From IMG/VR virus record IMGVR_UViG_3300036719_006047, positions 1 through 64,000 of that record: 64,000 nucleotides of DNA; one strand, given 5' to 3'. Below the pieces are notes generated by a model that worked only from the letters and a program-made list of their open reading frames with translations, had not been told where the DNA came from and searched no databases. The position numbers and the translations under genes are program-made. Shown here one piece after another: positions 16,949 through 61,465 of this stretch (the first letter of the stretch is position 1; every line of letters begins with the position of its first letter). Source of the DNA: a virus.

Positions 16949-17557
16949 TCAGTTCGGAGCAGCGCCGAGCTTCGACAGGATGCTGCTGCGGGTAGCGGTA
17001 CCGGCAACGGCAGCCGGAGTGCTGGCCGGGGTGATCGCCGGAGCGGCGGCCTCAGCGCGGCCTGCAGCAGGAGCAGCAGGGGCGTGGCTCTCGCCAGGGA
17101 CGAAGTTCTCGGAGCGCTCCTTCCAGATGGCGGGCGGCAGGAAGTCAACGCGGTCGTAGCTACCCTCGCCGGGCGACGGCACGTAGTAGATGAACGCGTT
17201 GCGGTTCACGATGGCGTTGGAGCTGAGCTGCAGCTCGCCGTTGTCGAGCACGTTGGGGGCGTGACCGACACTCTCGAGCAGACCACGCCACAGGTTGCGG
17301 GCGTAGTCCTTCGCCTCACCGTTGGGCAGGTTGATGCCAGTGGTGCGGACAGCGCCCTTGCTCTGGCCATCGAGCACCTTGACCTTGATGACGACACGGC
17401 CGGGCTTCTCGGGCTTAACGTAGGCATCGGTGACGGTCACCTTGTAGTAGCCCTCTTCCATCGCAAGGACGGAGTTGGCAGCAGCGACACCGCTGAGGTT
17501 GACCTGGAAGGACCAGCTGCGATCACCATCGTTCTGGGTAGCGATATCGGTCGACAT
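16949..17557 (-). CDS. Probable single-stranded DNA-binding protein (DUF669-like)
   Basis: A 202-aa protein with a beta-rich N-terminal ~135 residues (EGYYKVTVTDAYVKPEKPGRVVIKVKV... near 36-64) and a conserved phage-like NAFIYYVPSP.......DFLPPAIW near 122-144. A flexible Ala/Pro-rich tail from about 155 ends at SKLGAAPN. OB-like core plus flexible tail is the layout of phage SSB and DUF669 proteins, and it is directly downstream of a Sak4-like ATPase, the usual pairing. This tail is not strongly acidic, unlike E. coli SSB. Local GC is higher than that of its neighbours. ATG at 17557, 17 nt after the upstream stop. Confidence 0.6.
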   Translation of the reverse strand: MSTDIATQNDGDRSWSFQVNLSGVAAANSVLAMEEGYYKVTVTDAYVKPEKPGRVVIKVKVLDGQSKGAVRTTGINLPNGEAKDYARNLWRGLLESVGHAPNVLDNGELQLSSNAIVNRNAFIYYVPSPGEGSYDRVDFLPPAIWKERSENFVPGESHAPAAPAAGRAEAAAPAITPASTPAAVAGTATRSSILSKLGAAPN

Positions 17558-17574: not shown

Positions 17575-18468
17575 TTAGAGGACGTTTTCTGCGGTCTGGA
17601 AGAACTTCAGTCTGCGCTTAGTCAAAGCTTTTCTGATAATGGAACGGTCCAAGGCATCACGCAAAATCCAAATGGCTTCCTCTTCTGGCATACTCTCCGA
17701 GAGGAGCATCGAATAGGTATCATTGGCGAAGTTTTCGAGGTCTGCTCCCTCCAAAGTGATGAGCTTATCGCTGAACACCTGCACAATCTCTTCGTTCTTT
17801 TCCATATCGGGCAGCCGAGGAATGTGCAAGCCCGCCGCCCGAAGAATCTCTGCCAGGTTCATCGGAGCCGGGTCAGACTTCTGGGCAATGTTGAATCGAT
17901 CCTTCATGGTGAAGGAAGGATCCCCGCTGCACCGGTACACGCCGTGCCAAGGCTGACGCTTGGGCTCGTAGCCTGCGCGAAGGACGATGTCACACATGGC
18001 CGGCACCTGCTCCGGAAGCTTGCCGGGAAGCATGGGGCCGCCCTTGATCTTGGCTCCGTTCGGATTGACCTTCGGGGGCTGCTCCCAGCAGCTCATCACC
18101 ACATCGATGCCGGCGTAGCGGGCCTCGTTGCGGAAGTGAAGCACCTGATCACGGATCGCACCCCAAAGGGCAAAGCCAGTTTTCTTCTTCTCTAGAGCAG
18201 AAATAGTCTGCTCAGCAATAAAGCTGAAGTCGTCAAAGACGATAGCCGAATAGCTTTTCTTTGCTTGACCGAGCAGCTTTGTAGCCTCTTCGATCGTCGT
18301 GGCCTCAGCAACAGCGGGCTGATAACCACAAGTCGTCTTGATCGAGGTCAAAGCGCCCGGAGCAGCAATGAAGAGAGCTCTCGGGAAAGAGTAGCCAGTA
18401 TCAACTGTTTTTCCAATCCCCGAAGGGCCGTAAACACACGCAACAACACCTTCTCTGTCGTTTGCCAT
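17575..18468 (-). CDS. Sak4/RecA-like recombination ATPase (AAA_24)
   Basis: A 297-aa P-loop ATPase with Walker A GPSGIGKT at 14-21, the Sak4-like region FPRALFIAAPGALTSIK at 28-44, Walker B SAIVFDDFSF at 74-83, and a polar motif VVMSCWEQPPKVN near 123-135 followed by GGPMLPGKLPEQVP. Sak4 proteins are minimal RecA-core ATPases that stimulate SSAP- or SSB-dependent annealing in phage recombination. Companion genes fit: an SSB-like gene follows at 17 nt, and a RecB/Cas4-like nuclease lies upstream. A good sigma70-type promoter immediately precedes it. Confidence 0.8.
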   Translation of the reverse strand: MANDREGVVACVYGPSGIGKTVDTGYSFPRALFIAAPGALTSIKTTCGYQPAVAEATTIEEATKLLGQAKKSYSAIVFDDFSFIAEQTISALEKKKTGFALWGAIRDQVLHFRNEARYAGIDVVMSCWEQPPKVNPNGAKIKGGPMLPGKLPEQVPAMCDIVLRAGYEPKRQPWHGVYRCSGDPSFTMKDRFNIAQKSDPAPMNLAEILRAAGLHIPRLPDMEKNEEIVQVFSDKLITLEGADLENFANDTYSMLLSESMPEEEAIWILRDALDRSIIRKALTKRRLKFFQTAENVL

Positions 18469-18735: not shown

Positions 18736-20064
18736 TTAGTCTTTCCACGTCCACTTGGGGTCACCCTTGCTGGTGTGACCCCAACGACAACGATCCAGGA
18801 ACTCGCAGGCCCCGTAGCGGTGGAAGCACGTAAGCTCGTTCATCGCTTTGGGCCACAAGTGAATCGGTCTGCTGCTCTCCTGCATGCGAATGATCGATTC
18901 CTCGATGTCTTCGACAGTCTGCTCGAATTGAGCCTCGAAGTGAGGCGCGGAAGGCAGGCTGATTCGCTCGAACTTGGGCGTCTTGCTGACTTCAATCAAG
19001 TTGAGCTTCAGGCCGACAGTCTCGGGGTGATGCTGTCGGGCCAAGTATTGGTAGCCAATCAACTGACCTGAAGCAGAATAGTACTGCTTGTGCGAAGGAG
19101 TGAGCCGGCTTGTCGTGTTGTGGGTCACGATGCCGTTTCCAGTAACGAAGGTGTGGAACTTAGGCACCTCGATGTCGTAGCACCACACAGCCGGCATCGT
19201 CAGATTGCCCGTTACTCTTACCCACTCCAACACCTTCGGCAGCTCTCCGTTCGCAGGAAGTCCTCGAGCAACAAGCTCATCCGTCTGGATGAAACAAGCC
19301 TTCTTCCAGCCCGACTTCGTCAAGATGGGATGGTTGTAGCCGTACTCTTCGCTGCTTCCGTCAATGAAATACAGTCGGTTGACGTTCATCATCCCCGCTC
19401 TCTCAGGGGCACGAGCCTCCGACCACGAAAATGACTTTTTGTCCTCGTCGTAAGCGAGACAAGTCCAAGGTCTTTTTGCTTCAAAGAGCGCGCCTACGGT
19501 CATGACGCCCCTTGGCGTCAAAACCCGCGTCGAAGCGGGCAGGCACTTGTGGTCTGCGGCCCACAGGCGGCCTCCCGCGTCATGCCACAACAAGTCAATC
19601 CGTCCCGTGAAAAGATACTTTCCTCGGATCGTGTGCTCGTAGAGCTTCTCGACACCGAAAATTTTGAGGTTCTTCTCGTCGAGAGGATAGTGATCGCAGT
19701 AGGCTTCGAACACCTCAAGAACAAGAGGAACGAACTCTTCGCCTCCGATCACTTTGGCGATGAAGGGAACTGCCTCTTTCGGATGCTCGTAAAGTTCAGG
19801 ATCTCTGCCGTTTTGCTCTTCCATCATTCGAGCGTAGTGCTGAGCCAGTGCCAAGTGCATCAGGCTGCCCTTCGCCAAGGCAGGACTGCCTGGCCCCTCT
19901 TTCTCCTTCACGCCATCTTCTGTGCCTGTTCCGTACGACCAGGCATATTTCTGCAAGCACTCAGCCCCCTGCTGGAGACGGTGCCACCCTCGAGACGAAG
20001 AACCCGTAAAGATGATAAGAGGCTCAGGTTTATGCACTTTGACTCCCAGGCAGTCATTTGGCAA
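18736..20064 (-). CDS. PD-(D/E)XK nuclease (Cas4/RecB-like) interrupted by an intein
   Basis: A 442-aa precursor that would splice to about 299 aa. The nuclease motifs are ALAKGSLMHLALA near 62-74 (motif I His70), FTGRIDLLW at 152-160 (Asp157) and AADHK at 169-173 (Asp171-x-Lys173). Motif GQLIGYQYLA, including the QxxxY pattern, follows the intein. A CxxxxxC cluster near the C-terminus (CEFLDRCRW) plus earlier cysteines could form the Fe-S site typical of Cas4/AddB-like enzymes. The fold predicts 5'-3' or ssDNA exonuclease activity in recombination, consistent with adjacent Sak4, SSB and UvrD genes. The 143-aa intein begins immediately after the catalytic Lys, so splicing must precede activity. 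Confidence 0.85.
   Translation of the reverse strand: MPNDCLGVKVHKPEPLIIFTGSSSRGWHRLQQGAECLQKYAWSYGTGTEDGVKEKEGPGSPALAKGSLMHLALAQHYARMMEEQNGRDPELYEHPKEAVPFIAKVIGGEEFVPLVLEVFEAYCDHYPLDEKNLKIFGVEKLYEHTIRGKYLFTGRIDLLWHDAGGRLWAADHKCLPASTRVLTPRGVMTVGALFEAKRPWTCLAYDEDKKSFSWSEARAPERAGMMNVNRLYFIDGSSEEYGYNHPILTKSGWKKACFIQTDELVARGLPANGELPKVLEWVRVTGNLTMPAVWCYDIEVPKFHTFVTGNGIVTHNTTSRLTPSHKQYYSASGQLIGYQYLARQHHPETVGLKLNLIEVSKTPKFERISLPSAPHFEAQFEQTVEDIEESIIRMQESSRPIHLWPKAMNELTCFHRYGACEFLDRCRWGHTSKGDPKWTWKD
19117..19545 (-). other. Mini-intein in the Cas4/RecB-like nuclease
   Basis: Precursor residues 174-316. It starts CLPASTRVLTPRG (block A), contains GYNHPILTKSGW (block B-like) near 242-253, and block F VWCYDIEVPKFHTF near 293-306. 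It ends GIVTHN, followed by Thr+1, with a canonical His-Asn terminus. There is no endonuclease domain. It is unrelated in detail to the polymerase mini-inteins. Confidence 0.9.
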
Positions 20065-37545: not shown

Positions 37546-37546
37546 C

Positions 37547-38419: not shown

Positions 38420-38425
38420 TGTATT

Positions 38426-38827: not shown

Positions 38828-38829
38828 TG

Positions 38830-43432: not shown

Positions 43433-43444
43433 GGCCTGAATCAA

Positions 43445-45906: not shown

Positions 45907-46389
45907 TCAGAAGAGGTCGAAGGGGTTGTTAGCGGCATTCTTCGCCTTCTTTCTGTCCGCAAAGCCGGGACCCTCGCCCCAAGCCTTCTTTCGGCCCGAC
46001 AAGAGGCGATCGCGATGGTTCAGCTCAGCCGCCGCAAGTGCTGCCAGCTCACGGTCGGAGCCCGCAGCGATCTGCGCGAGAAGCTCAGACGTTGCAGCCG
46101 CAAGATCAGCCTTGTGTGCGAAAGCAGACACTTCAAACGCCACGGGCGCGGTGTAAGTGCGATCTCGCTTCGGCAAACGCCCCGCCTTCTGCGCGCCCTT
46201 GAAAGAACGACGGCCTGCGTTCTGTCTCGCGGAAGAGCACTCGCTCGGATTGGCGTGCATCCAGCGCTTGCCGCCCTTGGGGCCGACCTCGGTGGGATGC
46301 TGACAAATCTGGCTCTCTCCGGGAGTGAACTCTTCTCCGCACTCTACGCAGCTCTGCCCGGGGAACTTCGCTGTTCTGACGTCCTGCAT
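45907..46389 (-). CDS. Zinc-finger protein (160 aa)
   Basis: ATG 46389 is preferred because CGGAGACACAC precedes it. Residues 12-50 carry CVECGEEFTPGE and HPTEVG..GGKRWMHANPSEC, a CxxC...H...H/C-type ligand set that may bind zinc. A basic region and an Ala-rich helix (AAGSDRELAALAAAELNHRD) follow, ending in NPFDLF. It may be a DNA-end or RNA-binding accessory protein; unproven. It is the first gene of its run, with a GTGCTAC motif 39 nt upstream of the ATG. Confidence 0.55.
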   Translation of the reverse strand: MQDVRTAKFPGQSCVECGEEFTPGESQICQHPTEVGPKGGKRWMHANPSECSSARQNAGRRSFKGAQKAGRLPKRDRTYTAPVAFEVSAFAHKADLAAATSELLAQIAAGSDRELAALAAAELNHRDRLLSGRKKAWGEGPGFADRKKAKNAANNPFDLF

Positions 46390-46427
46390 GTGTGTCTCCG
46401 GCCGATCGGCTCGATGTCTCTTTAGCA

Positions 46428-46434
46428 GTAGCAC
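46428..46434 (-). promoter_or_regulatory. GTGCTAC motif upstream of the 46389 gene
   Basis: The minus-strand GTGCTAC at 46434-46428 is followed after one base by GCTAA, 39-45 nt before the ATG. It shares the GTGCTAC-N1-3-GCTAA arrangement with the motifs at 34553 and 41748. The plus-strand GTGCTAC at 46472-46478 coincides with the stop codon of the pentapeptide gene and may be chance. Confidence 0.35.
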
Positions 46435-46474
46435 GCTGAGCCGAGGCCGACGCTTTCTTTCCGTACCTGAAGTG

Positions 46475-46936
46475 CTACATCTCGATCAGGTTGAGCTTGA
46501 ACGTCTTTATTACGAGCTTTCCGTCAGAATCGGATTGCGCCACAAGTCTATTTTCGCTTTCTGTTCGCGTTTGTCTCAGGTCCAGCAGAATAAGTCCTTT
46601 CATCTCGTTGAGTGTTGGCATGTTTGTCTGCCACAAGGTCTCGTTAATGTCTGCTTCCGCAAAGTTTGTTCCTGTCAGCTTGCTCGCGGTAAACTGAGCT
46701 CCTACCAAAGTAGCTCCGCTAAAGTTTGAGTTCGTGAAGTCCACGAAATCGTAATTGCTGAAGCTCAAGTCCAAATCAGAGAGGTCCAAGTTGGTGAAAT
46801 CGCTATACTGTTCGCCTTCTTTTCTCTTTATTTCTGGCTGTTCTTCTCCTGCCCCTTGCCCGCTGTGATCCCACTCGGAACACTTATCCGCAAAATCGAT
46901 GAGAAACACAACGCGGGGGTCAGACATATCGGCCAC
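46475..46936 (-). CDS. Pentapeptide-repeat protein 1 (array end)
   Basis: A 153-aa member at the 3' end of the array. The N-cap MSDPRVVFLIDFADKC is present but the polar second helix is replaced by GAGEEQPEIKRKEGEQ. About ten A(D/N)L/F-type repeats follow (LDLSDLDLSFSNYDFVDF...), with more Phe than elsewhere. The C-terminal part is unlike the main family: MKGLILLDLRQTRTES, then DGKLVIKTFKLNLIEM, a variant cap shared with the 49608 and 37060 proteins. Start GTG 46936 (VADMSDPR) or the internal ATG of MSDPR. Confidence 0.8.
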   Translation of the reverse strand: MADMSDPRVVFLIDFADKCSEWDHSGQGAGEEQPEIKRKEGEQYSDFTNLDLSDLDLSFSNYDFVDFTNSNFSGATLVGAQFTASKLTGTNFAEADINETLWQTNMPTLNEMKGLILLDLRQTRTESENRLVAQSDSDGKLVIKTFKLNLIEM

Positions 46937-46944
46937 GGGTCACC

Positions 46945-47664
46945 TCAGTACCGCAAGGAGATACGCTTGATGCGTAGTTTACCGTCTTCTTCTGGCTGAA
47001 GCAAAAGATGTGGCTTCGCTTCGTCTTCAGCTGTAGGACTGGTCAGTAAAATTACATTGGCGCCCTTGAGGTTGGCGCGAGTGAGGTTGGCGCGAGTGAG
47101 GTTGGCACCAGCAAGATCGACGCGGGTCAGGTCGGCGGCGTAGAGGATGGCGCCGCTGAGGTCGGCGCGGCTGAGGTCGGCGCGGCTGAGGTTGGCGCTG
47201 TGGAGGCTGGCTTCGCTGAGGTTGGCGCCGATGAGCTTGGCGCCGATGAGCTTGGCGCCGTTGAGGTCGGCGTGTTCGAGGTCGGCGCCGTTGAGCTTCG
47301 CGCGGGCGAGGACGGCTTCTTCGAGGACGGCTTCTTCGAGGTTGGCGCCATCAAGGTTGGCGCCAGTGAGCTTGGCGCCGCGGAGGTCGGCGCCGCTAAG
47401 GTTGGCACCGCTGAGGTTAGCGCCTTTGAGCTTGGCGTCGATGAGGCCGGCGTCGGTGAGGTCGGCGCCGCCGAGCTTGGCGCCGGTGAGGTCGGCGCCG
47501 ATGAGGTTGGTAGTTTTGAGGTTTTCGCCGATGAGGTTGATATCAGACAGATCTTTGAGGTCAGACGGCAACAGCGGAATCTGCGATTTTTCTGCTTCAG
47601 CAACTCTGCATTCTTCTGCGTGAGACAGAACGCGAGGCACGCGAGGATCGGACATGTCTGCCAT
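46945..47664 (-). CDS. Pentapeptide-repeat protein 2
   Basis: A 239-aa protein. Cap: [20 protein letters not shown]. About 32 repeats of (A/S)xLxG form one continuous beta-helix without a break; a duplicated EEAVLEEAV unit near residue 112 marks local expansion. The C-cap is the second type: [22 protein letters not shown], with no GYPKEVAEK helix. The IKRI ending is shared with proteins 3 and 4, so these three form a subfamily. ATG start 8 nt after the upstream stop. Confidence 0.85.
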   Translation of the reverse strand: MADMSDPRVPRVLSHAEECRVAEAEKSQIPLLPSDLKDLSDINLIGENLKTTNLIGADLTGAKLGGADLTDAGLIDAKLKGANLSGANLSGADLRGAKLTGANLDGANLEEAVLEEAVLARAKLNGADLEHADLNGAKLIGAKLIGANLSEASLHSANLSRADLSRADLSGAILYAADLTRVDLAGANLTRANLTRANLKGANVILLTSPTAEDEAKPHLLLQPEEDGKLRIKRISLRY

Positions 47665-47672
47665 GGGTCACC

Positions 47673-48194
47673 TCAATAGCGTAGAGAAATACGTTTAATT
47701 TGTAATTTACCATCTTTTTCGGGTTGAAGCAGAAGATGTGGCTTCCGCTCGACGCTGGCAGGGCGGGTCAGTAGAATTACATTGCTGCTATTGAATTTAG
47801 TACCGCTAAACTTGGCGTTGGTGAGGTCGGCGCCGTTGAGCTTGGCGCCGGTGAGGTTGGTGCCGGTGAGCCTGGCGCCGGTGAGGTTGGCGCCGGTGAG
47901 GTTGGCGCCTTTGAGTTTGGCGTCGAAGAGGTCGGCTCCGGTGAGGTCGGCGTCGGTGAGGTCGGCGCCGGTGAGGTTGGCGCCCTGCAAGGAAGCGAGG
48001 GTGAGATCAGCGTTGGTGAGTTTGGCGCCAAGGAGGTTGGTGGTGTTGAGGTTGGCGTGGCTGAGGCTGATATTAGACAGATCTTTTAGTTCAGGCGGCA
48101 ATGACATAACAGGCCATTTTTGCACCACAGCTGAGCGACAAGCTTGTGCATGAGCGAGGACAAGTGGAACTCGGGGGTCAGACATGTCTGCCAT
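47673..48194 (-). CDS. Pentapeptide-repeat protein 3
   Basis: A 173-aa short member. N-cap [20 protein letters not shown] with an aromatic/hydrophobic helix ([17 protein letters not shown]). The beta-helix runs about residues 45-135 (some 18 repeats). C-cap [24 protein letters not shown] is the IKRI type. Its [11 protein letters not shown] segment, just before the cap, parallels proteins 2 and 4 ([16 protein letters not shown]), so the subfamily includes a conserved loop between helix end and cap. Confidence 0.85.
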
Positions 48195-48202
48195 GGGTCA
48201 CC

Positions 48203-48907
48203 TCAGTATTGCAAAGGGATACGTTTAATTTGTAGTTTACCATCTTTTTCGGGCTGAAGCAGAAGATGAGGCCCCGGTCTAAAATTACCCGTGGGGTTGG
48301 TCAGCAGAATTGCATTGGCGCCCGTGAGGTCGGCGCGGCGGAGGTTGGTGCCGGTCAGGTTGGCGCCGGTGAGGTTGGCACCGGTGAGGTCGGCGCCGGT
48401 GAGGTCGGCGTTGCTGAGGTTGGCGCCGTTGAGGTCGGCGCCGTTGAGCTTCGCGTTGGCGAGGTAGGCGCTTTCGAGGTCAGCGTTGGTGAGGTTGGCG
48501 TCTTTGAGGTTGGCGCTGCTGAGCCAGGCGCCTTTGAGGTCGGCGCCGGTGAGGTTGGCGCTGTAGAGCTTGGCGCCGTTGAGGTCGGCGCCGGTGAGGA
48601 TGGCGCCTCTGAGGTCGGCGCCGTTAAGATAGGAGTGGTTGAGGGTGGTGCCGGTCAGGTCGGCGCCGCCGAGGTTGGCGCCGGTGAGGTTGGCGCCGCT
48701 GAGGTTGGCGTTGGTGAGGTTGGCATTGGTGAGGTTGGCGTTGGTGAGGTTAGCGTCGCTGAGGTTGGCGCCGGTGAGGTCGATGCTAGACAGATCTCGG
48801 AGATCGTTAGGTAAGTCCGGTCTATCCTTGCCTTGATCAACAGACTGTCTACAAGCTTCTGCATGAGCGAGGACAAGAGGAACGCGGGGGTCAGACATAT
48901 CGGCCAC
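48203..48907 (-). CDS. Pentapeptide-repeat protein 4
   Basis: A 234-aa protein: N-cap [22 protein letters not shown], then about 32 repeats with unusually uniform triplets ([17 protein letters not shown]), and the IKRI-type C-cap [22 protein letters not shown] after [11 protein letters not shown]. Start GTG 48907 or internal ATG. The uniform coils suggest recent internal duplication. It closes the IKRI subfamily; the next gene upstream switches to the IKTPIFKY-like cap. Confidence 0.85.
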
Positions 48908-48915
48908 GGGTCACC

Positions 48916-49599
48916 TCAGTACCTGAAGATGCGAGTCTTGATGCGAACTTTGCCGTCGGAGTGAAGCTCAACAACAAGATTCTTGCTCGCATTATCACTG
49001 GCTCCGACTCGCGCCGAACCAAGCATAATAAACTTTTGTGCTACGTCTTGCGGGAAGCCCGCCACGGCCACGTACAAGTATCTTCCTTCCGCTAACTGTG
49101 ACTGCGTGATCTTGGCTCCTTTCAACTCGGCGAAACCTATTTTCGCATTAGTGACATTTGCGCCAGTTAGGTCAGCGTCAGTGAAGTCTGTGTCATGTAG
49201 CACTGAGCCAGTGAGGTCAGCTTTACTCAAATTCGCTTCGCTCAAGTTAGCTTTGTCTAGTTTGGCGTAACGCAATACAGCAGAGCTGAGATTCGCGCCG
49301 ATGAGGTCTGCTCCGCTCAGATCGCAGTTCATCAGATTCGCTCTACTCAAGTTTGCTTTCTTTAGCTTTGCGCCGCGAAGCACAGCATTCCTCAAGTCGA
49401 CGCCGCTCAGATCAGACCCAGTGAAATCAACTCCCGCGAAGTTGGCAGAGCTGAGAACAGCTCCGCTTAGATCTATTCCAGGCAAAGAGGTCAACTCTTG
49501 GGGTAAATCGGGCTTCTCTTCCAGAAATTGAGCAGCTTCTTTGCAGACTTCCGCATAGGCAAGGACGGCTTCGACGCGAGGATCAGACATGTCCGCCAT
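48916..49599 (-). CDS. Pentapeptide-repeat protein 5 (diverged)
   Basis: A 227-aa protein with N-cap [22 protein letters not shown] and about 22 repeats. Codon choice is more varied here than in its neighbours, so the nucleotide sequence is not a simple tandem repeat; this points to an older, non-homogenised member. The C-terminal part has [16 protein letters not shown], then AGFPQDVAQKFIML, a variant of [13 protein letters not shown], and ends NLVVELHSDGKVRIKTRIFRY. It is therefore a link between the two cap types. Confidence 0.85.
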   Translation of the reverse strand: MADMSDPRVEAVLAYAEVCKEAAQFLEEKPDLPQELTSLPGIDLSGAVLSSANFAGVDFTGSDLSGVDLRNAVLRGAKLKKANLSRANLMNCDLSGADLIGANLSSAVLRYAKLDKANLSEANLSKADLTGSVLHDTDFTDADLTGANVTNAKIGFAELKGAKITQSQLAEGRYLYVAVAGFPQDVAQKFIMLGSARVGASDNASKNLVVELHSDGKVRIKTRIFRY

Positions 49600-49607
49600 A
49601 GCCTACC

Positions 49608-50060
49608 TCACTCATCGTCCATTCGGAGTTGAGTAGCCCTGATCCTAACCTTTCCTGTCTCAGCTACCTGCGCGATCAATCTCGGTCTTCTGAGCTCTTC
49701 TGATATTTTCATGTATTGTTCGCCCAGGAGTATAAGACCTTTCACTGTTTCTAGATTTTTTCTGGGCAAACCCATACCTTCGATGTTGGCTCCTGTGAAG
49801 TTTGCTCCCTTTATGTTGGCTTTATACATGTACGTTCTGCTCAAATCACAACCTGTAAAATTTGTTTCGCTCAAGTCAGCACCATGGAAATCTAAACTAC
49901 TCAAAGTGGCAAAGCTCATGTCCGCTTTAGACAAATCTAACTTTTTCATGTCTCCTCTTCTGTGTGGGAATTGAGGTCTTTCCTTTCCTTCCTTGAGCGC
50001 TATCCTGCAGCGCTCGGCGTGCTTTAGCAAGTAGACAACGCGGGGGTCAGACATGTCCAT
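49608..50060 (-). CDS. Pentapeptide-repeat protein 6 (short, diverged)
   Basis: A 150-aa protein with MDMSDPRVVYLLKHAERCR, a basic linker (HRRGDMKKLDL), about ten repeats, and a KGLILLGEQYMK segment. It ends AETGKVRIRATQLRMDDE, lacking the IKTPIFKY ending. Like proteins 1 and 37060 it belongs to a KGLILL subfamily. Codons are diverse, not homogenised. It sits between long members and may be functionally distinct. Confidence 0.82.
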   Translation of the reverse strand: MDMSDPRVVYLLKHAERCRIALKEGKERPQFPHRRGDMKKLDLSKADMSFATLSSLDFHGADLSETNFTGCDLSRTYMYKANIKGANFTGANIEGMGLPRKNLETVKGLILLGEQYMKISEELRRPRLIAQVAETGKVRIRATQLRMDDE

Positions 50061-50068
50061 GAATCAGC

Positions 50069-50980
50069 TCAGTACTTGAAGATGGGAGTTTTGATGTGAA
50101 GTTTGCCGTCTGAGCGCAGTTCGACAACAAGTCTCTTTTTGGACTTTCGTTTCCAGGACGCAGGCGCTGGTTCGTGGGGCAAAATAACTTTTTCAGCTAC
50201 TTCTTTGGGGTAACCGTCTTGCGGTACATTGACATACTCTGCGCTATTCAATTGAATTTGAGTAATCTTCGCATCGGTCAAGTCGGCAAAACCTATTTGG
50301 GCGCGGTTGAGCTTGGCGCCGTAGAGGTGGGCGGCGCTGAGGTTGGCGCGAGTAAGGTTGGTCCCGGTGAGGTCGGCGCCGTAGAGCTTGGCGCGGGTGA
50401 GGTCGGCGCCCGTGAGGAAGGCGCCGGTGAGGTTGGCATCGGTGAGGTCAGCGTCTTCGAGGATGGCGCCGCCGAGCTTGGCGCCGGTGAGGTCGGCGCC
50501 GATGAGCTTGGCGCCGGTGAGGTTGGCGCCGGTGAGGTTGGCACCTTTGAGTTTGGCGCCATCAAGGTTGGCGCCAGTGAGCTTGGCGCCGCGGAGGTCG
50601 GCGCCGCTAAGGTTGGCGCCGGTGAAGTCGGCGCGGGTAATGTTGGCGTTGTAGAGGATAGCGGTGTAGAGGTTGGCTTTGGTGAGGTCGGCGCCTCCGA
50701 GGCTGGCGCCGTAGAGGTTGGCGCCGGTGAGGTTGGCACCGCTGAGGTTGGCGTTGGTGAGGTTGGCGCCGATGAGGTTGGCGCCGGTGAGGTTGGTGCC
50801 GCTGAGGTCGGCTTCGGCGAGGTTGGCGCCGGCGAGGTCGGCGCCGGTGAGGTCGATGCCAGAAAGATCTTTTAGCTCATGCGGCAGAGGAGGTATGCTC
50901 TTTTTCCACCACTTAGCTTCTCGACAAGCCTCTGCGTGAGCGAGGACAGCGATAACGCGGGGGTCGGACATGTTGGCCAT
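50069..50980 (-). CDS. Pentapeptide-repeat protein 7 (303 aa)
   Basis: One of the longest members. N-cap [27 protein letters not shown], about 36 repeats, [16 protein letters not shown], then [16 protein letters not shown] and C-cap [24 protein letters not shown] 125-nt stretch in its 3' part is identical but for one base to the gene at 57308-58069, evidence for gene conversion across 7 kb. It is the first pentapeptide gene downstream of the SNF2 helicase, 3 nt from its stop. Confidence 0.88.
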
Positions 50981-50983
50981 GAA

Positions 50984-53818
50984 TCACTTCGATCTCGATT
51001 TGCTGCTAGCTTCTTGTGTGTTGAGTTGATGCATCCTTCTTTCCGCCTCTGCTGCAGTAGCGAAAGTGAGGAGGTCAGGCATCACTCTGTAAACGATGGG
51101 CCCCGAGAAGATGTCACTCTTCTCTGCGATGACGCGACGCGGCCCTGACTTCCTACCTACCGCTAGCATCTTTTCGTAGCGTACACGCTTAGCCCAAAAC
51201 TCAGCAGGATCGGCGATTATCTTTTCTACAGCTCTTTCGCGGCTCTCGGGTGTCGGCATGTTTGTGCCAGGAATGAGGAAGGGATAGGAATGCCTCCTTC
51301 CGGCAATCTGAAAAGCTCTTTGCTTTGCTTCTTCAGGACTGTAGCCTTCTCTCAAACCTGACTCAAAGATGGCCAACCGCATCCGTCGAATTTGCTCTTC
51401 GTACGGATCGAGCACCTCGATGCCGTCTTCTTTGGGGTTGGTGTTTGCCGTCTGTTTGTCTTTGGGCGCCTTGGCGTTGATGTTGTCGTAGCGCAGCCTC
51501 ATGACCTGTTCTGGCATCAATTCAGCCATCAAGATATGCAGATAGTCTCTAACGTTGACGCCTGCTCCTTTACCTGAACCTTCTTCGAGCAAAGTCTTGA
51601 ACTCAATCGGCATCTCGTTGAGCACTTGAGCCGGCTTTCTGTTGTACGAAGGCGCCGAAGAATAATCGTCTTGCGGTCCTTCCCCCAAAACGAGGCGCGT
51701 GTGGTTGCGCTTCTTCTCGATTCGGCTCATCAACGCAAACGAGAAAGGATCGTTGGGGATGACGTAGATGATTTTGGGCTCTACGTTCTGCTCGGGCCGG
51801 TTGATGCGGTCTTCTGCTTGCGCTTCGATGCCGGGGTTCGGCATGCGCTGAATGAACAACAGCGTGTCTGCTGCGCTCAGGTTCAACCCTTCGCTGCCTG
51901 CTCGGGTCAAGATGACAATGGCTCTCTTGTCCTTCGCGTCAAGTTTTTCGGGGAACCTCAGACGTCGGCTCAACTCATCGAAGTCGCTGTATTCGTCTCC
52001 AAGCTTCTTTGCGGCTGACTGCGGCGTCTTGATCGGCTCGAGCACACTCGACTTCTTTTCTGCCATGCTTACGCGAGAAGCGTCTGCAACGTAAATCCTG
52101 ATGTTCGGGAATGCCTCTCTCAGCTTCTCAAAAAGCTTCTTCACGACGTCTTTGTGGTAAGCAAAGATAACCATCGGCCTGTCGAAATCTTTGTTCTCCG
52201 TGTTGTTTATTCTGTTTGACACAGCAGCGATCGTGCCATCGATCACGCTGGTGCCCATTCCTTTCATGAGAGTCGGAGGGATTGGGATGTAACCGCCGTA
52301 AAGCAGTTTCTTCAGCTTGTCCTTGAACACGGCGACGACAGCAGGGCTGAGTACTTCAGCCGCTGGTCTGCCTTTGTTTTTCGTCAGGTAAGCGTCGAAT
52401 TCCTGGAACACCTTTGAGGCTGCGTTGATCTTTTTTGCGTATTCTGCTTTGTCGGACGCCTTTCCACTCTTCCGCGAAGATCTTGCGATGACCTCTTTCG
52501 ACTTCTCGATAGCGGCCATAACTTCTTCGATTCTCTGGCTGTCAGGCGGCAGAATCAGGTAGGCTCTCTTCTTCTCTCTGAGCTGGAAACGAGCCAAAGC
52601 TCCAGTCTCTACAGCAAGTCGCCTGGGGTGACGAGTGCCCTTCGCGTACAACTCTTTTTGCAGCTTTTTCTGGGGCTCCTCGTTCTCCCAGTCCTTGAAC
52701 GTGATGTGACCTGTCCTTGAGAGCGTCATATCGTCGAAGTTCAGTCCTGTCTTGGCAGACAAGAAAATCGCTTCGAGCGACTTCGCCATCTGCTCGTCTG
52801 CGACAGGGTAGTCGTGGTAAGGAACCTCACCCACCGGCTCGAGCATGTTCAGAATGCTGGCAAGCTCTCCTGGGTCGTTGAGCATCGGTGTGCCCGTCAA
52901 CGCCAGCACGTGGGGGATGTAGTTCGCCAAATAGTAGCAGACTTTTGTGTTTTCCGAGCCGTAGTACTTCAACCTGTGGGCTTCGTCGAACACAATGGTC
53001 TTGATCTTGGCTGTGATCAGGTCACGAACTTCGACCGCTTCTTTTTGCTGTGCAGGAGTTGGTAACTTTAGTCTTTTGCTTTTTGCCACGACCTCCTCGA
53101 CAGGCTCGCTCTCGTCCTCCATATCGTCCAAGCTTGATGCAAGCTCAACTCTATCTTCCTTTGCGCCGAACGCTGTGTAGTACTCGGGCAGGGCTCTGCC
53201 GGCATAAGCTCCTGCGGGCCAAAGTAACGTTCTCAGCATCTCATAGGTAACCAGAATTACACTGTTTTCGTTAGCTTCTTCGACCGTTCTTCTGAGCCTG
53301 TTTGATGCCTCTACCTCGACTACAGTGTAGTTTGTTCTCAGCGCAAAAGTGTTTTTCCAAGAAGGCAGAGCGCTTCTCGGACAAACAACGAGGGCAGGCA
53401 AGTAACTCTCTGTGTCCGTCTCGAGCGTTTGGCCCGCATCGCCTGCGGCAATCGTCAAAACAGCTGTAGTTGTCTTTCCTAAGCCCATAGGATCGAACAA
53501 GCCCGCTCTGCCGCCTCGGTACAAAGCGAACAGCATCCCGGCCATCTGGTAGGGCAAGGCTGGTTGGCCTTTGCTGTAAAACTTCTTCGCCTTGATAGCA
53601 TTATCGAGAACGGCTTTAGCGGCCGCATCGATCTTCTCGTAATCCTCTCCCGAGAAGCCGTACTTCTCGTTGATGATACCCGGATAGCGCGAGATCTTGC
53701 TCCCTGTGTCGGGAGTGATCTCTGCTACAGGACTTAAATTCTGCTTTTTGCCTCTCTTTGCGGGAGGGTTTTTGCGGAAGATGACTTCTCGGTCCGGGAG
53801 AAGAGCGATGCGGTACAT
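50984..53818 (-). CDS. SNF2-family helicase embedded in the array
   Basis: A 944-aa SF2 translocase. Residues 1-85 are an N-terminal extension. Walker A DPMGLGKTT near 109-117, DEAHRL near 275-280, TGTPMLNDPGEL, and in lobe 2 GSEGLNLSAADTLLFIQRMPNPG with AQAEDRINRPEQN (motif VI) are intact. A long insertion with Lys/Ala-rich coiled coil (about 440-500) separates the lobes. It is larger than the 24665 helicase and not its recent duplicate. It is co-oriented and contiguous with pentapeptide genes, hence probably co-transcribed; a functional link is untested. Confidence 0.9.
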   Translation of the reverse strand: MYRIALLPDREVIFRKNPPAKRGKKQNLSPVAEITPDTGSKISRYPGIINEKYGFSGEDYEKIDAAAKAVLDNAIKAKKFYSKGQPALPYQMAGMLFALYRGGRAGLFDPMGLGKTTTAVLTIAAGDAGQTLETDTESYLPALVVCPRSALPSWKNTFALRTNYTVVEVEASNRLRRTVEEANENSVILVTYEMLRTLLWPAGAYAGRALPEYYTAFGAKEDRVELASSLDDMEDESEPVEEVVAKSKRLKLPTPAQQKEAVEVRDLITAKIKTIVFDEAHRLKYYGSENTKVCYYLANYIPHVLALTGTPMLNDPGELASILNMLEPVGEVPYHDYPVADEQMAKSLEAIFLSAKTGLNFDDMTLSRTGHITFKDWENEEPQKKLQKELYAKGTRHPRRLAVETGALARFQLREKKRAYLILPPDSQRIEEVMAAIEKSKEVIARSSRKSGKASDKAEYAKKINAASKVFQEFDAYLTKNKGRPAAEVLSPAVVAVFKDKLKKLLYGGYIPIPPTLMKGMGTSVIDGTIAAVSNRINNTENKDFDRPMVIFAYHKDVVKKLFEKLREAFPNIRIYVADASRVSMAEKKSSVLEPIKTPQSAAKKLGDEYSDFDELSRRLRFPEKLDAKDKRAIVILTRAGSEGLNLSAADTLLFIQRMPNPGIEAQAEDRINRPEQNVEPKIIYVIPNDPFSFALMSRIEKKRNHTRLVLGEGPQDDYSSAPSYNRKPAQVLNEMPIEFKTLLEEGSGKGAGVNVRDYLHILMAELMPEQVMRLRYDNINAKAPKDKQTANTNPKEDGIEVLDPYEEQIRRMRLAIFESGLREGYSPEEAKQRAFQIAGRRHSYPFLIPGTNMPTPESRERAVEKIIADPAEFWAKRVRYEKMLAVGRKSGPRRVIAEKSDIFSGPIVYRVMPDLLTFATAAEAERRMHQLNTQEASSKSRSK

Positions 53819-53820
53819 GA

Positions 53821-54165
53821 TTAGAACCCACCCACTGAGTTTCTGTTTTCAGGAGCCGGCCCGAAACGAACGATACCGTTCACGACCTGCTTCTTCTCGA
53901 GAAGGTCTCTCTCGGTCGAGCCGTCCTCGCCCAGCTTCTGCTGCAGTTCAGCAATACCTACAGGCTCTTTCCTGTGAACAGAGCTGTTGTAAGCTGCTGT
54001 CTGCGGCACGAAATGTGGCGCAGAGAAGTAACCTGCCACCCCTCCGGCCGCTGCCGCCACCAACGGGATGTTGGAGTCCTCGTCAGCTTCGTACTTCTTG
54101 CCCAAGAAGTACCCGAGAGCTGCTCCGATGGCCGCCCCTGCGAGGCGTGCTGTATTCTGGGTCAT
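53821..54165 (-). CDS. Glycine-zipper membrane protein (114 aa)
   Basis: ATG 54165 is preferred: GGAGGCACC directly precedes it, and the longer frame to 54297 is not protein-like. The protein has two glycine-rich hydrophobic helices, LAGAAIGAALGYFLGKK (7-23) and VAAAAGGVAGYFSAP, then a polar helix (GIAELQQKLGEDGSTERDLLEKK). Glycine-zipper repeats oligomerise in membranes. It starts 2 nt before the SNF2 helicase gene. The same GGAGGCACC ribosome-binding site precedes the last gene at 63933. Confidence 0.65.
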   Translation of the reverse strand: MTQNTARLAGAAIGAALGYFLGKKYEADEDSNIPLVAAAAGGVAGYFSAPHFVPQTAAYNSSVHRKEPVGIAELQQKLGEDGSTERDLLEKKQVVNGIVRFGPAPENRNSVGGF

Positions 54166-54190
54166 GGTGCCTCCAGTTCTGCCCACTGAG

Positions 54191-54209
54191 TCTCGCCTAA
54201 GTAGCGAGA
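54191..54209. other. Leader hairpin of the glycine-zipper gene
   Basis: TCTCGC (54191-54196) and GCGAGA (54204-54209) form a perfect 6-bp stem with a 7-nt loop, 26 nt before the ATG at 54165. It could affect translation or message stability. No T tract follows. Confidence 0.3.
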
Positions 54210-54497
54210 ACGCAGGGCATCCACGAGACACAATAGCCTTTGCCCGGTCTTTGGTCGCTTTACCGACCCGTCTTCGAGTGCTGCAGCTCTGCGTCAATAC
54301 TTTGAGACTCGATTCACGTTGTACAGAGCGTCTTCTCGCTTTAGGCTAATACTTCTTCTATTTTCTGCCTTTCGAGCTAAATCTCTTTGGCCGAAGGGGC
54401 TATAAGGTTGAGTTTGTTCTATCTGAATCGCTTCCTTGCACTATTTTTAGTGAGCTACAAGCTCGCCTGCGAGGGTCAGACATGCTCATGCATCAGC
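54210..54497. other. Gap in the pentapeptide array
   Basis: This gap, counting the remnant at 54400-54489, breaks the otherwise continuous array. Outside the remnant, I see only a degenerate CTGCAG palindrome near 54282-54292 and no gene. A minus-strand TTGACG near 54297-54292 is a possible -35 without a good -10. Confidence 0.4.
54400..54489 (-). pseudogene. Truncated pentapeptide gene start (remnant)
   Basis: Immediately after the stop of the 54498 gene, the usual spacing and start context recur, and the frame opens MSMSDPR before diverging into an unrelated 22-codon tail and TAG at 54402. The N-cap start is therefore kept, but the beta-helix and C-cap are gone. The 5' junction is exactly where the next array gene would begin, so this is what remains after a deletion that also brought in the membrane protein and SNF2 helicase or removed their upstream neighbours. 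Confidence 0.75.
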
Positions 54498-55121
54498 TCA
54501 GTACTTGAAAATGGGAGTTTTGATGTGAAGCTTGCCGTCAGAACGAAGCTCGGCGACAAGTCTCTTTTTGGCGACACGGCTCCCGCGATCGGCTTCTGGC
54601 TCGTGAAGAAAAATAACTTTTTCGGCTACTCCTTCGGGGTAGTCCAAATTCGCAACATCGCGATACCCTGCGCTATTCAATTGACTTTGAGTGATCTTCG
54701 CGTTGTTCAAATCAGCGAAACCGATGGAGGTCCTGAACAAGCTGGCGTCGGTGAGATTAGCGCCGGTGAGGTTGGCGCCCTTGAGGTTGGCTTCCCCGAG
54801 GCGGGCGCCGGTGAGGTCGGCGCGGGTGAGGTTGGAGCCGCTGAGGTTGGCGCCGGTGAGCTTGGCACCGGTGAGGTTGGCGTCGGTGAGGTTGGCTCCG
54901 GTGAGGTTGGCGCCGTAGAGGTTGGCGCGGAAGAGATTGGCGCCGGTGAGGTCGGCGTCGTTGAGCTCGGCTTCGGCGAGGTCGGCGCCGGATAGGTCGA
55001 TGCCAGAAAGATCTTTGAGATTATGCGGCAAAGAAGGTCTGCTATCTCCCCGAGCATAAGCTTCTTTGCAAGCCCTTGCGTGAGCGAGGACAGCGATAAC
55101 GCGGGGGTCGGACATGTTCAT
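54498..55121 (-). CDS. Pentapeptide-repeat protein 8
   Basis: A 207-aa member with N-cap [21 protein letters not shown], some 20 repeats between residues 40 and 140, [32 protein letters not shown] and C-cap [23 protein letters not shown]. The VAEK helix varies (YPEGVAEK). It is the last intact gene before the gap and helicase, and its stop is 8 nt from the remnant start, matching the array spacing. Confidence 0.87.
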
Positions 55122-55129
55122 GATTCACC

Positions 55130-55675
55130 TCAGTACTTGAAGATGGGAGTTTTGATGTGAAGTTTGCCGTCAGAACGAAGTTCAACGACAAGTCTTTTTT
55201 TGGCTTCAGTAAGCCCGCTGCTGGGTTCGTGAAGCAAAATGAATTTTTTAGCTGCTGCCACTGGGTAACCATTGTATGCTACATTTATATTGGACGAAGA
55301 TTCAATTTGGTCTTGCGTAATCTTCGCGTCGGTCAAGTCAGCAAAACCGATGTAGGCTTTGGTCAAGTTGGCGTCGGTGAGGTTGGCTCCTGTAAGATCG
55401 GAGTCGTTGAGGCTGGCGCGAGTGAGGTTGGCGCCGGTCAGGTTAGCGTTAATGAGGTTGGTTTTGCCGAAGATGGCACCGGTGAGGTTGGCGCCCGTGA
55501 GATCGACGCCCTCGAGATCGGTGTCACCGAGGCTGGCGTTCGTGAGGTCGATGCCAGAAAGATCTTTGAGCTCATGAGGCAGAGGAGGTCTGCTCTTTTT
55601 AAACCACTTAGCTTCTTTGCAAGCCCTTGCGTGAGCGAGGATAGCGACAACGCGGGGGTCGGACATGTTGGCCAC
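55130..55675 (-). CDS. Pentapeptide-repeat protein 9
   Basis: A 181-aa short member. N-cap [27 protein letters not shown]; only about 14 repeats; [38 protein letters not shown]-cap [23 protein letters not shown]. The VAAAKKF helix deviates from [10 protein letters not shown]. Start GTG 55675. The repeat part is not homogenised. Otherwise standard. Confidence 0.87.
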   Translation of the reverse strand: MANMSDPRVVAILAHARACKEAKWFKKSRPPLPHELKDLSGIDLTNASLGDTDLEGVDLTGANLTGAIFGKTNLINANLTGANLTRASLNDSDLTGANLTDANLTKAYIGFADLTDAKITQDQIESSSNINVAYNGYPVAAAKKFILLHEPSSGLTEAKKRLVVELRSDGKLHIKTPIFKY

Positions 55676-55683
55676 GGTTCACC

Positions 55684-56544: not shown

Positions 56545-56552
56545 GAATCACC

Positions 56553-57299: not shown

Positions 57300-57307
57300 A
57301 GATCACC

Positions 57308-58069
57308 TCAGTACTTGAAGACGGGAGTCTTGATGTGCAGTCTGCCGTCTGCTCGAAGCTCAACAACAAGTCTTTTTTTGGCTGTTCGTTTCCAGGACGC
57401 AGGCGCTGGTTCGTGGGGCAAAATAACTTTTTCAGCTACTTCTTTGGGGTAACCGTCTTGCGGTACATTGACATACCCTGCGCTATTCAATTGAATTTGA
57501 GTAATCTTCGCGTTGGTCAAGTCAGCGAAACCTAATTTGGCACTTTTGAGGTCGGCGCCTTCGAGGTTGGCGCCGGTGAGGTCGGCGTCGGTGAGGTCGG
57601 CGCCGCCGAGGTCGGCGTCGGTGAGGTCGGCGCCGGTGAGGTTGGCGCCGCTGAGCTCGGCGCGGAAGAGTCTGACGCGGGTGAGGTTGGCTCCGCTTAG
57701 GTCAGCGCCCTCGAGCTTGGCGCCGTCGAGATCGGCGCCGCTGAGGTCGGCGTTGGTGAGGTTGGCGCTGCTGAGGTCGGCGCCTTCGAGAACGGCGTCG
57801 GTGAGGTTAGCGTCGGTGAGGTTGGCGCCGATGAGCCAGGCGCTGATGAGCTTGGCGCTGATGAGCTTGGCGTCGGTGAGGTTAGCGTCGGTGAGGTTAG
57901 CGTCGGTGAGGTCGGCTTCTTCGAGATTGGCGCCGGAGAGGTTGATGCCAGAAAGATCTTTGAGTTTATGAGGCAGAGGAGGTCTGCTCTTTCCCCCCGA
58001 CTTAGCTTCTCGACAAGCCTCTGCGTGAGCGAGGATAGCGATAACGCGGGGGTCGGACATATCGGCCAC
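57308..58069 (-). CDS. Pentapeptide-repeat protein 12 (gene-conversion partner)
   Basis: A 253-aa member. N-cap [27 protein letters not shown], then about 32 repeats; contains the [16 protein letters not shown] block that recurs in protein 14. Downstream, 57387-57511 matches 50148-50272 of protein 7 with a single mismatch, and the following [19 protein letters not shown] differs only in a few residues. C-cap ends HIKTPVFKY (Val for Ile). Start GTG 58069. Confidence 0.88.
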   Translation of the reverse strand: MADMSDPRVIAILAHAEACREAKSGGKSRPPLPHKLKDLSGINLSGANLEEADLTDANLTDANLTDAKLISAKLISAWLIGANLTDANLTDAVLEGADLSSANLTNADLSGADLDGAKLEGADLSGANLTRVRLFRAELSGANLTGADLTDADLGGADLTDADLTGANLEGADLKSAKLGFADLTNAKITQIQLNSAGYVNVPQDGYPKEVAEKVILPHEPAPASWKRTAKKRLVVELRADGRLHIKTPVFKY

Positions 58070-58077
58070 AGATCACC

Positions 58078-59046
58078 TCAGTACTTGAAGATGGGAGTCT
58101 TGATGTGCAGTCTGCCGTCTGCTCGCAGTTCAATGACAAGTCTCTTTTTGGCCTTTCGCTTGTGTGGTATAGGTTCTGGTTCGTGAAGCAAAATAACTTT
58201 TTCGGCTACTTTTTTAGGGTAACCGTCTTTTGCTACATCGACATAATTTGAGGCATTCAATTGATCTTGAGTAATCTTCGCGTTGGTCAAGTCAGCGAAA
58301 CCTATTTCGGCTCTTTTGAGGTCGGCGCCTTCGAGGTTGGCGCCGGTGAGGTTGGCGTTGGTGAGGTTGGCGCCGGTGAGGTTGGCGTCGCTGAGTTTGG
58401 TGCTGTGGAGGTTGGCACCGGTGAGGTTGGCGCCCCAGAGGTTGGCGCCGTTGAGGTCGGCGCCGGTGAGGATGGCGCCTCTGAGGTCGGCGCCGGTGAG
58501 GTTGGCACTGGTGAGGTCAGCGTTGGTGAGGTTGGCGCCGGTGAGGTTGGCGCCGACGAGGTTGGCGCCGGTGAAATTGGAGCCGATGAGCCAGGCGTCG
58601 CGGAGCTCGGCGCGGTTGAGGTTGGCGTAGTTGAGCTTGGCGCCGTTGAGCCTGGCGCCGGTGAGGTCGGCGCCCCCGAGGCGGGCATTCTCGAGGGCGG
58701 CGTCGGTGAGGTCGGCGCCGGTGAGGTTGGCGCCGCTGAGGTTGGCGCCTCTGAGGACGGCGCCGGTGAGGACGGCGCCGGTGAGGTTGGCGCCGTTGAG
58801 GTCGGCGCCGGTGAGGTTGGCGCGGGTGAGGTTGGCGCCGTTGAGGTCGGCGCCGGTGAGGATGGCGCCTCTGAGGTCGGCGCCCTCGAGCTTGTCGCCG
58901 TCGAAATCGGCGCCGGTGAAGTCTATGCCAGACAGATTTCTAAGATTAGAGGGTAAGACTGGAACGATTTCTCCCTGCTGCTTAGCTTTTTGGCAAGCCT
59001 TTGCGTGAGCGAGGACAGCGATAACGCGGGGGTCGGACATGTTCAT
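58078..59046 (-). CDS. Pentapeptide-repeat protein 13 (longest, 322 aa)
   Basis: The longest member: N-cap [26 protein letters not shown], about 43 repeats, [33 protein letters not shown] and [23 protein letters not shown]. Several blocks recur inside it and in protein 14, notably [20 protein letters not shown], at DNA and protein level, indicating duplication by recombination. With about 11 coils of four pentapeptides, the rod should be roughly 5 nm long (about 0.48 nm per coil, known for pentapeptide helices). Confidence 0.88.
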
Positions 59047-59054
59047 GATTCACC

Positions 59055-59855
59055 TCAATACTTGAAGATGGGAGTCTTGATGTAAAGTTTGCCGTCTGCT
59101 CGCAGTTCAACGACAAGTCTCTTTTTGGCTATTCGTTCCCAGGACGTAGGCGGTTCGTGAAGCAAAATAACTTTCTCGGCTACTTCTTTGAGGTAGCCCA
59201 AATCCGCAACATTGACATAATTTGAGTCATCCAATTGATCTTGAGTAATCTTCGCGTTGGTCAAGTCAGCGAAACCTATTTCGGCGCCGTTGAGGTCGGC
59301 GCCGGTGAGGTCGGCGTCGGTGAGGTCGGCGCCGGTGAGGTTGGCGCCGCTGAGCTCGGCGCGGAAGAGTCTGACGCGGGTGAGGTTGGCGCCGTTGAGG
59401 TCGGCGCCGGTGAGGTTGGCGCCGTTGAGGTCGGCGCCGGTGAGGATGGCGCCTCTGAGGTCGGCGCCGGTGAGGTTGGCACTGGTGAGGTCAGCGTTGG
59501 TGAGGTTGGCGTCTTTGAGGTTGGCGCTGTTGAGCTTGGCGCTGTTGAGGTTGGCGCGGGTGAGGTTGGCGCTGTAGAGCTTGGCGCCTCTGAGGTCGGC
59601 GCTGAAGAGCCAGGCGCCGCTGAGGTTGGCGCCGTTGAGGTCGGCGCCGGTGAGGTCGATGCCGGTGAGCTTGGCGTCGGTGAGGTCGGCGCGGGTGAGG
59701 TTGGCGCCGGTGAGGTCGGCGCCGGTGAGGTCGATGCGATAAATATCTTTGAGAATATGCGGCAGAGAAGGTCTGCTTCTTTTCTGCCGATTAGCTTCTC
59801 GACAAGCCTCTGCGTGAGCGAGGACAAGAGGAACGCGGGGGTCGGACGTGCCCAT
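59055..59855 (-). CDS. Pentapeptide-repeat protein 14
   Basis: A 266-aa member. The N-cap begins [22 protein letters not shown], with Thr in place of the usual Met before SDPR, so the normal internal Met start is absent and ATG 59855 must be used. Beta-helix of about 35 repeats with the [10 protein letters not shown] block shared with protein 12 and the [14 protein letters not shown] block shared with 13. C-part: [61 protein letters not shown] replaces GYPKE. Confidence 0.88.
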
Positions 59856-59863
59856 GAATCACC

Positions 59864-60406: not shown

Positions 60407-60414
60407 GAATCACC

Positions 60415-61137: not shown

Positions 61138-61140
61138 GGT

Positions 61141-61422: not shown

Positions 61423-61465
61423 CTGTCACTCTCGCTCTTAGGGGGCGCGGCACAGGAAGGTGCTC

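What the first reader, a model, noticed from the sequence alone, without database searches (positions are those of the whole stretch)
50148..50272. Near-identical 125-nt segments 7 kb apart
Positions 50148-50272 and 57387-57511 differ at one base, while the flanking coil-encoding DNA differs more. Both encode the same linker and start of the C-cap (EPAPASWKR and [16 protein letters not shown]). This is what recent gene conversion or unequal crossover inside the array would leave.
Basis: seen in the sequence. Interest (0 to 1): 0.7.

Follow-up and report, generated by a model that had tools for sequence, protein, structure and literature searches.

The report
Shuffled pentapeptide-repeat gene array in phage

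Summary
In detail: 50146-50272 and 57385-57511 match over 127 nt with one mismatch. Inside the tract there are 0 synonymous differences at 28 sites (median of 55 pairs 0.63 per site); the same two genes differ at about half of synonymous sites in both C-cap flanks. A column-permutation test gives global p<=2e-4. g7's tail is closest to g9/g10 and g12's to g13, so the tract has its own history.

The tract is not alone: coils share 100-, 84- and 65-nt exact blocks, beyond a unit-shuffle null. Best explanation: short gene-conversion-like exchange among paralogues, plausibly by the virus's own Sak4-like annealing protein, PD-(D/E)XK nuclease and SSB-like protein (link inferred). A single unequal crossover would not leave a short tract bounded on both sides. 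"Recent" is only relative; direction is unknown. The array's function is unknown; DNA mimicry is a guess. No relative of the caps was found. New variant of a known kind.

The parts
50146..50272 (-). Near-identical tract, copy in g7 (residues 237-279)
   Evidence: 126/127 identical to 57385-57511; residues
57385..57511 (-). Near-identical tract, copy in g12 (residues 187-229)
   Evidence: 126/127 identical to 50146-50272; residues
46475..46936 (-). g1, 153 aa, divergent C-cap
   Evidence: ORF, SDPRV N-cap
46945..47664 (-). g2, pentapeptide-repeat gene, 239 aa, C-cap of the g2-g4 type
47673..48194 (-). g3, pentapeptide-repeat gene, 173 aa
48203..48907 (-). g4, pentapeptide-repeat gene, 234 aa
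48916..49599 (-). g5, pentapeptide-repeat gene, 227 aa
49608..50060 (-). g6, 150 aa, divergent C-cap
50069..50980 (-). g7, pentapeptide-repeat gene, 303 aa, holds one copy of the tract
   Evidence: PF00805 7e-78
50984..53818 (-). SNF2-type helicase gene between the two blocks of the array
   Evidence: PF00176 6e-20
53821..54297 (-). Glycine-zipper ORF between the two blocks
   Evidence: PF13488 7e-6
54498..55121 (-). g8, pentapeptide-repeat gene, 207 aa
55130..55675 (-). g9, pentapeptide-repeat gene, 181 aa
55684..56544 (-). g10, pentapeptide-repeat gene, 286 aa
56553..57299 (-). g11, pentapeptide-repeat gene, 248 aa
57308..58069 (-). g12, pentapeptide-repeat gene, 253 aa, holds the other copy of the tract
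   Evidence: PF00805 2.7e-51; model
58078..59046 (-). g13, pentapeptide-repeat gene, 322 aa
   Evidence: PF00805 3.6e-93
59055..59855 (-). g14, pentapeptide-repeat gene, 266 aa
59864..60406 (-). g15, pentapeptide-repeat gene, 180 aa
60415..61137 (-). g16, pentapeptide-repeat gene, 240 aa
   Evidence: PF00805 1.7e-38
58438..58537 (-). 100-nt exact block shared by coils of g13 and g14 (other copy 59412-59511)
57608..57691 (-). 84-nt exact block shared by coils of g12 and g14 (other copy 59307-59390)
55124..55201 (-). 78-nt exact block at the 3' ends of g9 and g10 with the spacer (other copy 55678-55755)
47342..47406 (-). 65-nt exact block shared by coils of g2 and g7 (other copy 50553-50617)
17575..18468 (-). 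Sak4-like annealing protein gene, candidate recombinase
   Evidence: phrog_124 8.4e-24; AAA_24 7e-14
18736..20064 (-). PD-(D/E)XK nuclease gene, candidate recombination nuclease
   Evidence: phrog_1218 5e-14; PF12705 5e-13
16949..17557 (-). SSB-like gene beside the Sak4-like gene (weak)
   Evidence: phrog_6015 1.4e-4; no Pfam match

Best explanation
The tract is the trace of a gene-conversion-like exchange between two members of a 16-gene pentapeptide-repeat array in a virus genome, and it is one of many such exchanges. Shown: the tract, its boundaries, the absence of synonymous change inside it, discordant neighbours on its two sides, and many other shared blocks in coils and caps. Inferred: single strands freed at a break or replication gap in one gene anneal to a paralogue, helped by the virus's own Sak4-like protein, nuclease and SSB-like protein, and copy roughly 50-150 nt before returning. 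The 15-nt coil unit and the repeated cap-spacer-cap junction let such copying stay in frame nearly anywhere, so coils vary by whole units while caps stay exchangeable.
For: One mismatch in 127 nt against 13/77 and 12/50 in the flanks. 0 synonymous differences at 28 sites against a median of 0.63 for all 55 pairs; flanks of the same pair 0.52 and 0.45. Permutation test global p<=2e-4, the floor of 5000 permutations. Tract tree joins g7 and g12 (97/94), tail tree joins g12 and g13 (81/81); the tract rejects g12+g13 (AU p=0.025). Triplet scan: 39 of 990 at p<=1/301, the best including both directions of the g7/g12 exchange. Coil blocks of 100, 84 and 65 nt, 17 matches of at least 40 nt, against a shuffle null with maximum 71 nt and mean 1.3 matches. 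Coil lengths agree modulo 5 in 10 of 11 genes. Sak4-like protein, nuclease and SSB-like protein in the same genome. Published: Sak4 recombineering tolerates 12% divergence (PMC5928155, passages); Red-beta needs 23-27 bp exact pairing and about 100-bp exchanges within genes are reported as frequent (PMC3945230, passages).
Against: g7 and g12 are also the closest pair in the N-cap (0.908) and the tail does not firmly reject g7+g12 (AU p=0.062), so shared ancestry contributes. The top triplet tests survive Bonferroni only at the resolution floor (0.0495). Neither direction nor non-reciprocity can be shown. The link to the Sak4-like module is circumstantial. No reads or sister genomes with the array.
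Confidence: 0.83

Rival explanations
1. g7 and g12 are recent whole-gene duplicates; their flanks were later overwritten by other paralogues or diverged faster, and the tract is what is left of the original identity.
For: g7/g12 are the closest pair both in the whole C-cap (0.90) and in the N-cap (0.908); the tail does not reject them as a pair (p=0.062).
Against: The tract differs from the N-cap too (1/127 against 11/120, Fisher p=0.002) and from both flanks; coil flanks are only 72-76% identical in register; g7/g12 are not among the top coil-sharing pairs. It also needs exchange with other paralogues, so it is still mosaic evolution.
Confidence: 0.1
2. One unequal crossover between g7 and g12 type genes produced the identity.
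For: Tandem genes with constant caps and 8-nt spacers are a good substrate; g13 has an internal 57-nt duplication 390 nt apart, so unequal events or slippage do occur in coils.
Against: A single crossover would leave one long duplicated stretch; the identity is bounded on both sides within 127 nt.
Confidence: 0.04
3. Purifying selection on protein or on a nucleotide element keeps the segment identical.
For: The segment is cap, the more conserved part of the protein.
Against: Other pairs have median pS 0.63 over the same columns and g7/g12 have 0 of 28; the segment includes the most variable part of the C-cap (APASWKR); no Rfam match in 46000-61500.
Confidence: 0.02
4. A dedicated variation system (retroelement or silent-cassette system) makes the changes.
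For: Constant caps with variable coils resemble cassette variation.
Against: No RVT_1 match in the whole record; no 30-nt match of the array elsewhere in the record, so no template outside it; block ends differ from block to block. Site-specific recombinases were not searched for by family.
Confidence: 0.02
5. Assembly artefact: reads of g7 and g12 were merged or flanks joined wrongly.
For: Exact runs of 84-100 nt are hard for short-read assembly; the only near-identical second contig (L099) stops at window 44259, before the array.
Against: A chimera needs the repeat to exist already; the copies keep a single-base difference; all 16 ORFs are open and 14 spacers are exactly 8 nt.
Confidence: 0.04

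Closest known systems
Pentapeptide repeat proteins (PF00805), e.g. HetL, QnrB1, MfpA, AlbG
   Same: Coil family and solenoid fold by profile, sequence and fold search.
   Different: Cap sequences have no relative found; 16 tandem genes in one virus, while two phage records looked at have one or two and 79 bacterial or archaeal loci have few (0-3 by a crude count).
Ectopic gene conversion in tandem multigene families (general knowledge)
   Same: Bounded tracts and discordant segment trees.
   Different: Seen here in a phage-type genome; phage genomes usually lack repeats according to PMC3945230 (passage). No expression site or silent store was seen.
Relaxed homologous recombination by phage annealing proteins (PMC3945230, PMC5928155)
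   Same: Short exchanges of about 100 nt between diverged sequences; a Sak4-like gene is present.
   Different: Published cases read here concern exchange between phages and prophages or with oligonucleotides; here it would be within one genome.

Membership tests
Pentapeptide repeat proteins | Consecutive A(D/N)LXX units scoring over the Pfam cut-off | tested here: met
   Scanned with PF00805: g6, g7, g12, g13 and g16 (5 of 16), all over the cut-off; matches over the cut-off fall in further array genes
Pentapeptide repeat proteins | Right-handed quadrilateral solenoid | tested here: met
   g12 model with pLDDT 95-99 over most of the coil, PDB matches all pentapeptide solenoids at the top; one of 16 proteins modelled
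Qnr/MfpA-type gyrase inhibitors | C-terminal dimer interface and acidic DNA-like surface | tested here: inconclusive
   Residues 203-253 have pLDDT under 50; coils net negative but whole-protein pI 4.3-9.5
Qnr/MfpA-type gyrase inhibitors | Binding or inhibition of DNA gyrase | not testable with these tools
   Needs an assay
Gene conversion tract | Bounded identity with independent history of the flanks | tested here: met
   weaker for the tail (AU p=0.062)
Gene conversion tract | Non-reciprocal transfer with a known donor | not testable with these tools
   No ancestor or sister array found
Diversity-generating retroelement | Reverse transcriptase gene | tested here: not met
   RVT_1 absent from the record; the control rang in 3 of 14 genomes
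Sak4 recombination module | Sak4-family protein beside an SSB-like gene | tested here: met
   phrog_124 8.4e-24; neighbour phrog_6015 1.4e-4 is weak and has no Pfam match

The most novel reading that the evidence does not exclude
The array is a virus-borne variable repertoire: constant caps and junctions serve as docking and exchange handles, coils are reshuffled by the virus's own annealing recombination, and the products are decoys (perhaps DNA mimics) that keep pace with varying host DNA-binding or defence proteins.
Probability: 0.18. Interest if true: 0.78.

Novelty: new variant of a known kind. Interest (0 to 1): 0.45.

Why it matters
Phage genomes usually lack repeats, and their relaxed recombination is normally described between genomes (PMC3945230, passages). 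Here one genome keeps 16 recombining paralogues of a solenoid fold. If the exchange is active, it is a natural system for studying how an annealing recombinase diversifies a protein family inside one virus, and perhaps a variable set of anti-host proteins.

Tried and rejected
Relatives of the array: profile scans of viral contigs with the C-cap and N-cap alignments gave 55 and 8 pattern hits, none confirmed. The g12 C-cap had no tblastn match in the phage collection. The SNF2 helicase, the DUF3987 protein and an AAA protein gave nothing in viral contigs. An exact junction pattern gave 0; an N-cap pattern gave one stretch, whose 45-kb record has no match to g12 DNA. The AAA gene at 41843 led to one near-identical contig, L099, without the array.

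A crude count over 81 loci (these 79 and two phage regions) gave 0-3 pentapeptide ORFs each, and none of the fetched loci outside the window's record then held (L001-L097) has the N-cap motif. The same count finds 13 of the 16 array genes, so it undercounts.

Rejected: constraint, retroelement, known RNA element, template outside the array. Limits: the coil shuffle used an automatic unit register that slips in g16 and is approximate in g1, g5 and g6. C-cap tests used 11 of 16 genes (g1-g4 and g6 have another C-cap). N-cap trees used 14 of 16 (g1 and g6 dropped). The structure model covers one of 16 proteins and was built from 14 of the 16 paralogues.

Literature searches listed no paper describing a phage pentapeptide array with gene conversion. 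Only listings were read, except passages of PMC10886550, PMC5928155, PMC7261183 and PMC3945230. The library is open-access only.

Full report
WHAT IS THERE. The window is the first 64 kb of a 136,910-bp virus record. Sixteen ORFs on the minus strand between 46475 and 61137 form one family: an N-cap with invariant SDPRV (16 of 16), a coil of pentapeptide units, and a C-cap. They stand in two blocks, g16-g8 and g7-g1, split by a SNF2-type helicase and a glycine-zipper ORF. All 14 spacers within the blocks are exactly 8 nt, and most junctions read TGAGGTGA, so the stop codon overlaps a ribosome-binding-like sequence (the reading as ribosome-binding is mine). Between the start of the coil and GFA of the C-cap, the length has the same remainder modulo 5 in 10 of the 11 genes with this C-cap; g16 is the exception. 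Coils thus differ by whole units.

THE OBSERVATION. The reported segments match at 124 of 125 positions, and the maximal tract is 127 nt with one mismatch. In g7 it encodes residues 237-279, in g12 187-229: the end of the solenoid, the following linker and the variable APASWKR stretch. It stops just before the terminal KKRL... stretch. Flanks in register are 64/77 and 38/50 identical.

IS IT MORE THAN CHANCE OR CONSTRAINT? Across the 55 pairs of the 11 comparable genes, C-cap identity runs from 0.57 to 0.90. The g7/g12 fragment covers 65 consecutive polymorphic columns (90 with one mismatch allowed) and no permutation of 5000 reached it. The tract has 0 synonymous differences at 28 sites (median pS of all 55 pairs 0.63; next lowest pair 0.165), while g7/g12 have pS 0.52 and 0.45 in the two flanks. 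Selection on the protein would not give that. A tree of the tract joins g7 and g12 (97/94); a tree of the tail joins g12 and g13 (81/81). In 39-nt slices g7's tail is nearest to g9/g10 and g12's to g13. Results that weaken the case: the tail does not reject g7+g12 (AU p=0.062), and in the N-cap g7 and g12 are again the closest pair, 0.908. The N-cap still differs from the tract in its rate of difference (Fisher p=0.002).

THE ARRAY IS MOSAIC THROUGHOUT. Of 990 triplets tested in the C-cap, 39 reach p<=1/301 where about 3 are expected if independent; they are not independent. The top four reach only the resolution floor (Bonferroni 0.0495), and two of them are the g7/g12 exchange seen from each side. 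In the coils, the longest shared block is 100 nt (g13/g14), then 84 (g12/g14) and 65 (g2/g7), with 17 matches of at least 40 nt. Shuffling the units within each gene 1000 times gave a maximum of 71 nt and a mean of 1.3 such matches, at most 9. Blocks link genes up to about 11 kb apart (54 nt, g4 with g13 and g14). g13 also holds an internal 57-nt duplication 390 nt apart. Over the whole record, exact direct matches of at least 24 nt number 226 inside the array and 17 elsewhere, with matches inside three low-complexity stretches left out.

HOW IT LIKELY WORKS. The record encodes a Sak4-like annealing protein at 17575-18468 (phrog_124, 8.4e-24), a PD-(D/E)XK nuclease at 18736-20064 and a weakly SSB-like neighbour at 16949-17557. 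Sak4 with its SSB anneals strands, and its recombineering tolerated 12% divergence (PMC5928155, passages). Red-beta needs 23-27 bp of exact pairing, and exchanges of about 100 bp within genes were reported as frequent in phages (PMC3945230, passages). The array offers many such pairing sites. The step from these genes to this tract is inference. A bounded tract argues for conversion or a double exchange; one unequal crossover would duplicate everything between. Which gene gave and which received cannot be told. Zero synonymous change at 28 sites bounds the age only loosely (dS below about 0.1 by the rule of three, my arithmetic).

WHAT THE PROTEINS ARE. Pfam and structure searches place them among pentapeptide repeat proteins. 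The g12 model is confident in the N-terminal helix and coil and poor in residues 203-253, so much of the C-cap, including most of the tract, has no reliable model. Gyrase-interacting relatives (QnrB1, MfpA, AlbG) share the solenoid, with query TM of about 0.2-0.4. Coils are net negative, but whole proteins range from pI 4.3 to 9.5. DNA mimicry, suggested for Qnr and McbG relatives (PMC7261183, PMC10886550, passages), is a guess here.

KNOWN OR NEW. The fold, ectopic conversion and relaxed phage recombination are each known. The combination, a 16-member recombining pentapeptide array in one virus, was not found in the collections or literature searched. In one search, 454 phage records match the g13 coil; only two of their regions were read, so similar arrays among the others are not excluded. 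I call it a new variant of a known kind.

Noticed in passing
L095:13640-18267 (record 97640-102267): A second tandem family: five consecutive ORFs of 288-322 aa with a shared W[RK]N motif, at 21-25% identity over the longer blastp matches, no Pfam match in the three scanned. Unlike the pentapeptide array it shows no long exact blocks.
   Followed up: partly
L099 (IMGVR_UViG_3300044733_005280) against window 31831-44259: A contig from another record is 99.9% identical to this stretch with one mismatch and one gap, and ends about 2.2 kb before the array. Its record has no g12-like DNA.
   Followed up: yes
L094:769-2000 (record 64769-66000): Exact direct repeats of 90, 71 and 44 nt outside the array, in a stretch of short ORFs.
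   Followed up: no
41843-45076 and L096:17537-19950: Two copies of an AAA ATPase gene followed by a DUF2201 (metallopeptidase and VWA-like) gene in one genome.
   Followed up: no
11776-16581 and 18736-20064: The DNA polymerase (1601 aa) and the nuclease ORF look interrupted by inteins; recalled from motifs, and part of the polymerase ORF matches phage genes of other function.
   Followed up: no
36197-37057 and 37060-37545: Two further pentapeptide-repeat ORFs outside the array, on opposite strands, only weakly like it.
   Followed up: no
63421-63645 and 33479-33573: Short tandem repeats: a 9-nt unit and a 6-nt unit.
   Followed up: no
24665-26506 and 50984-53818: Two SNF2-like helicase genes; the second sits between the two blocks of the array.
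   Followed up: no
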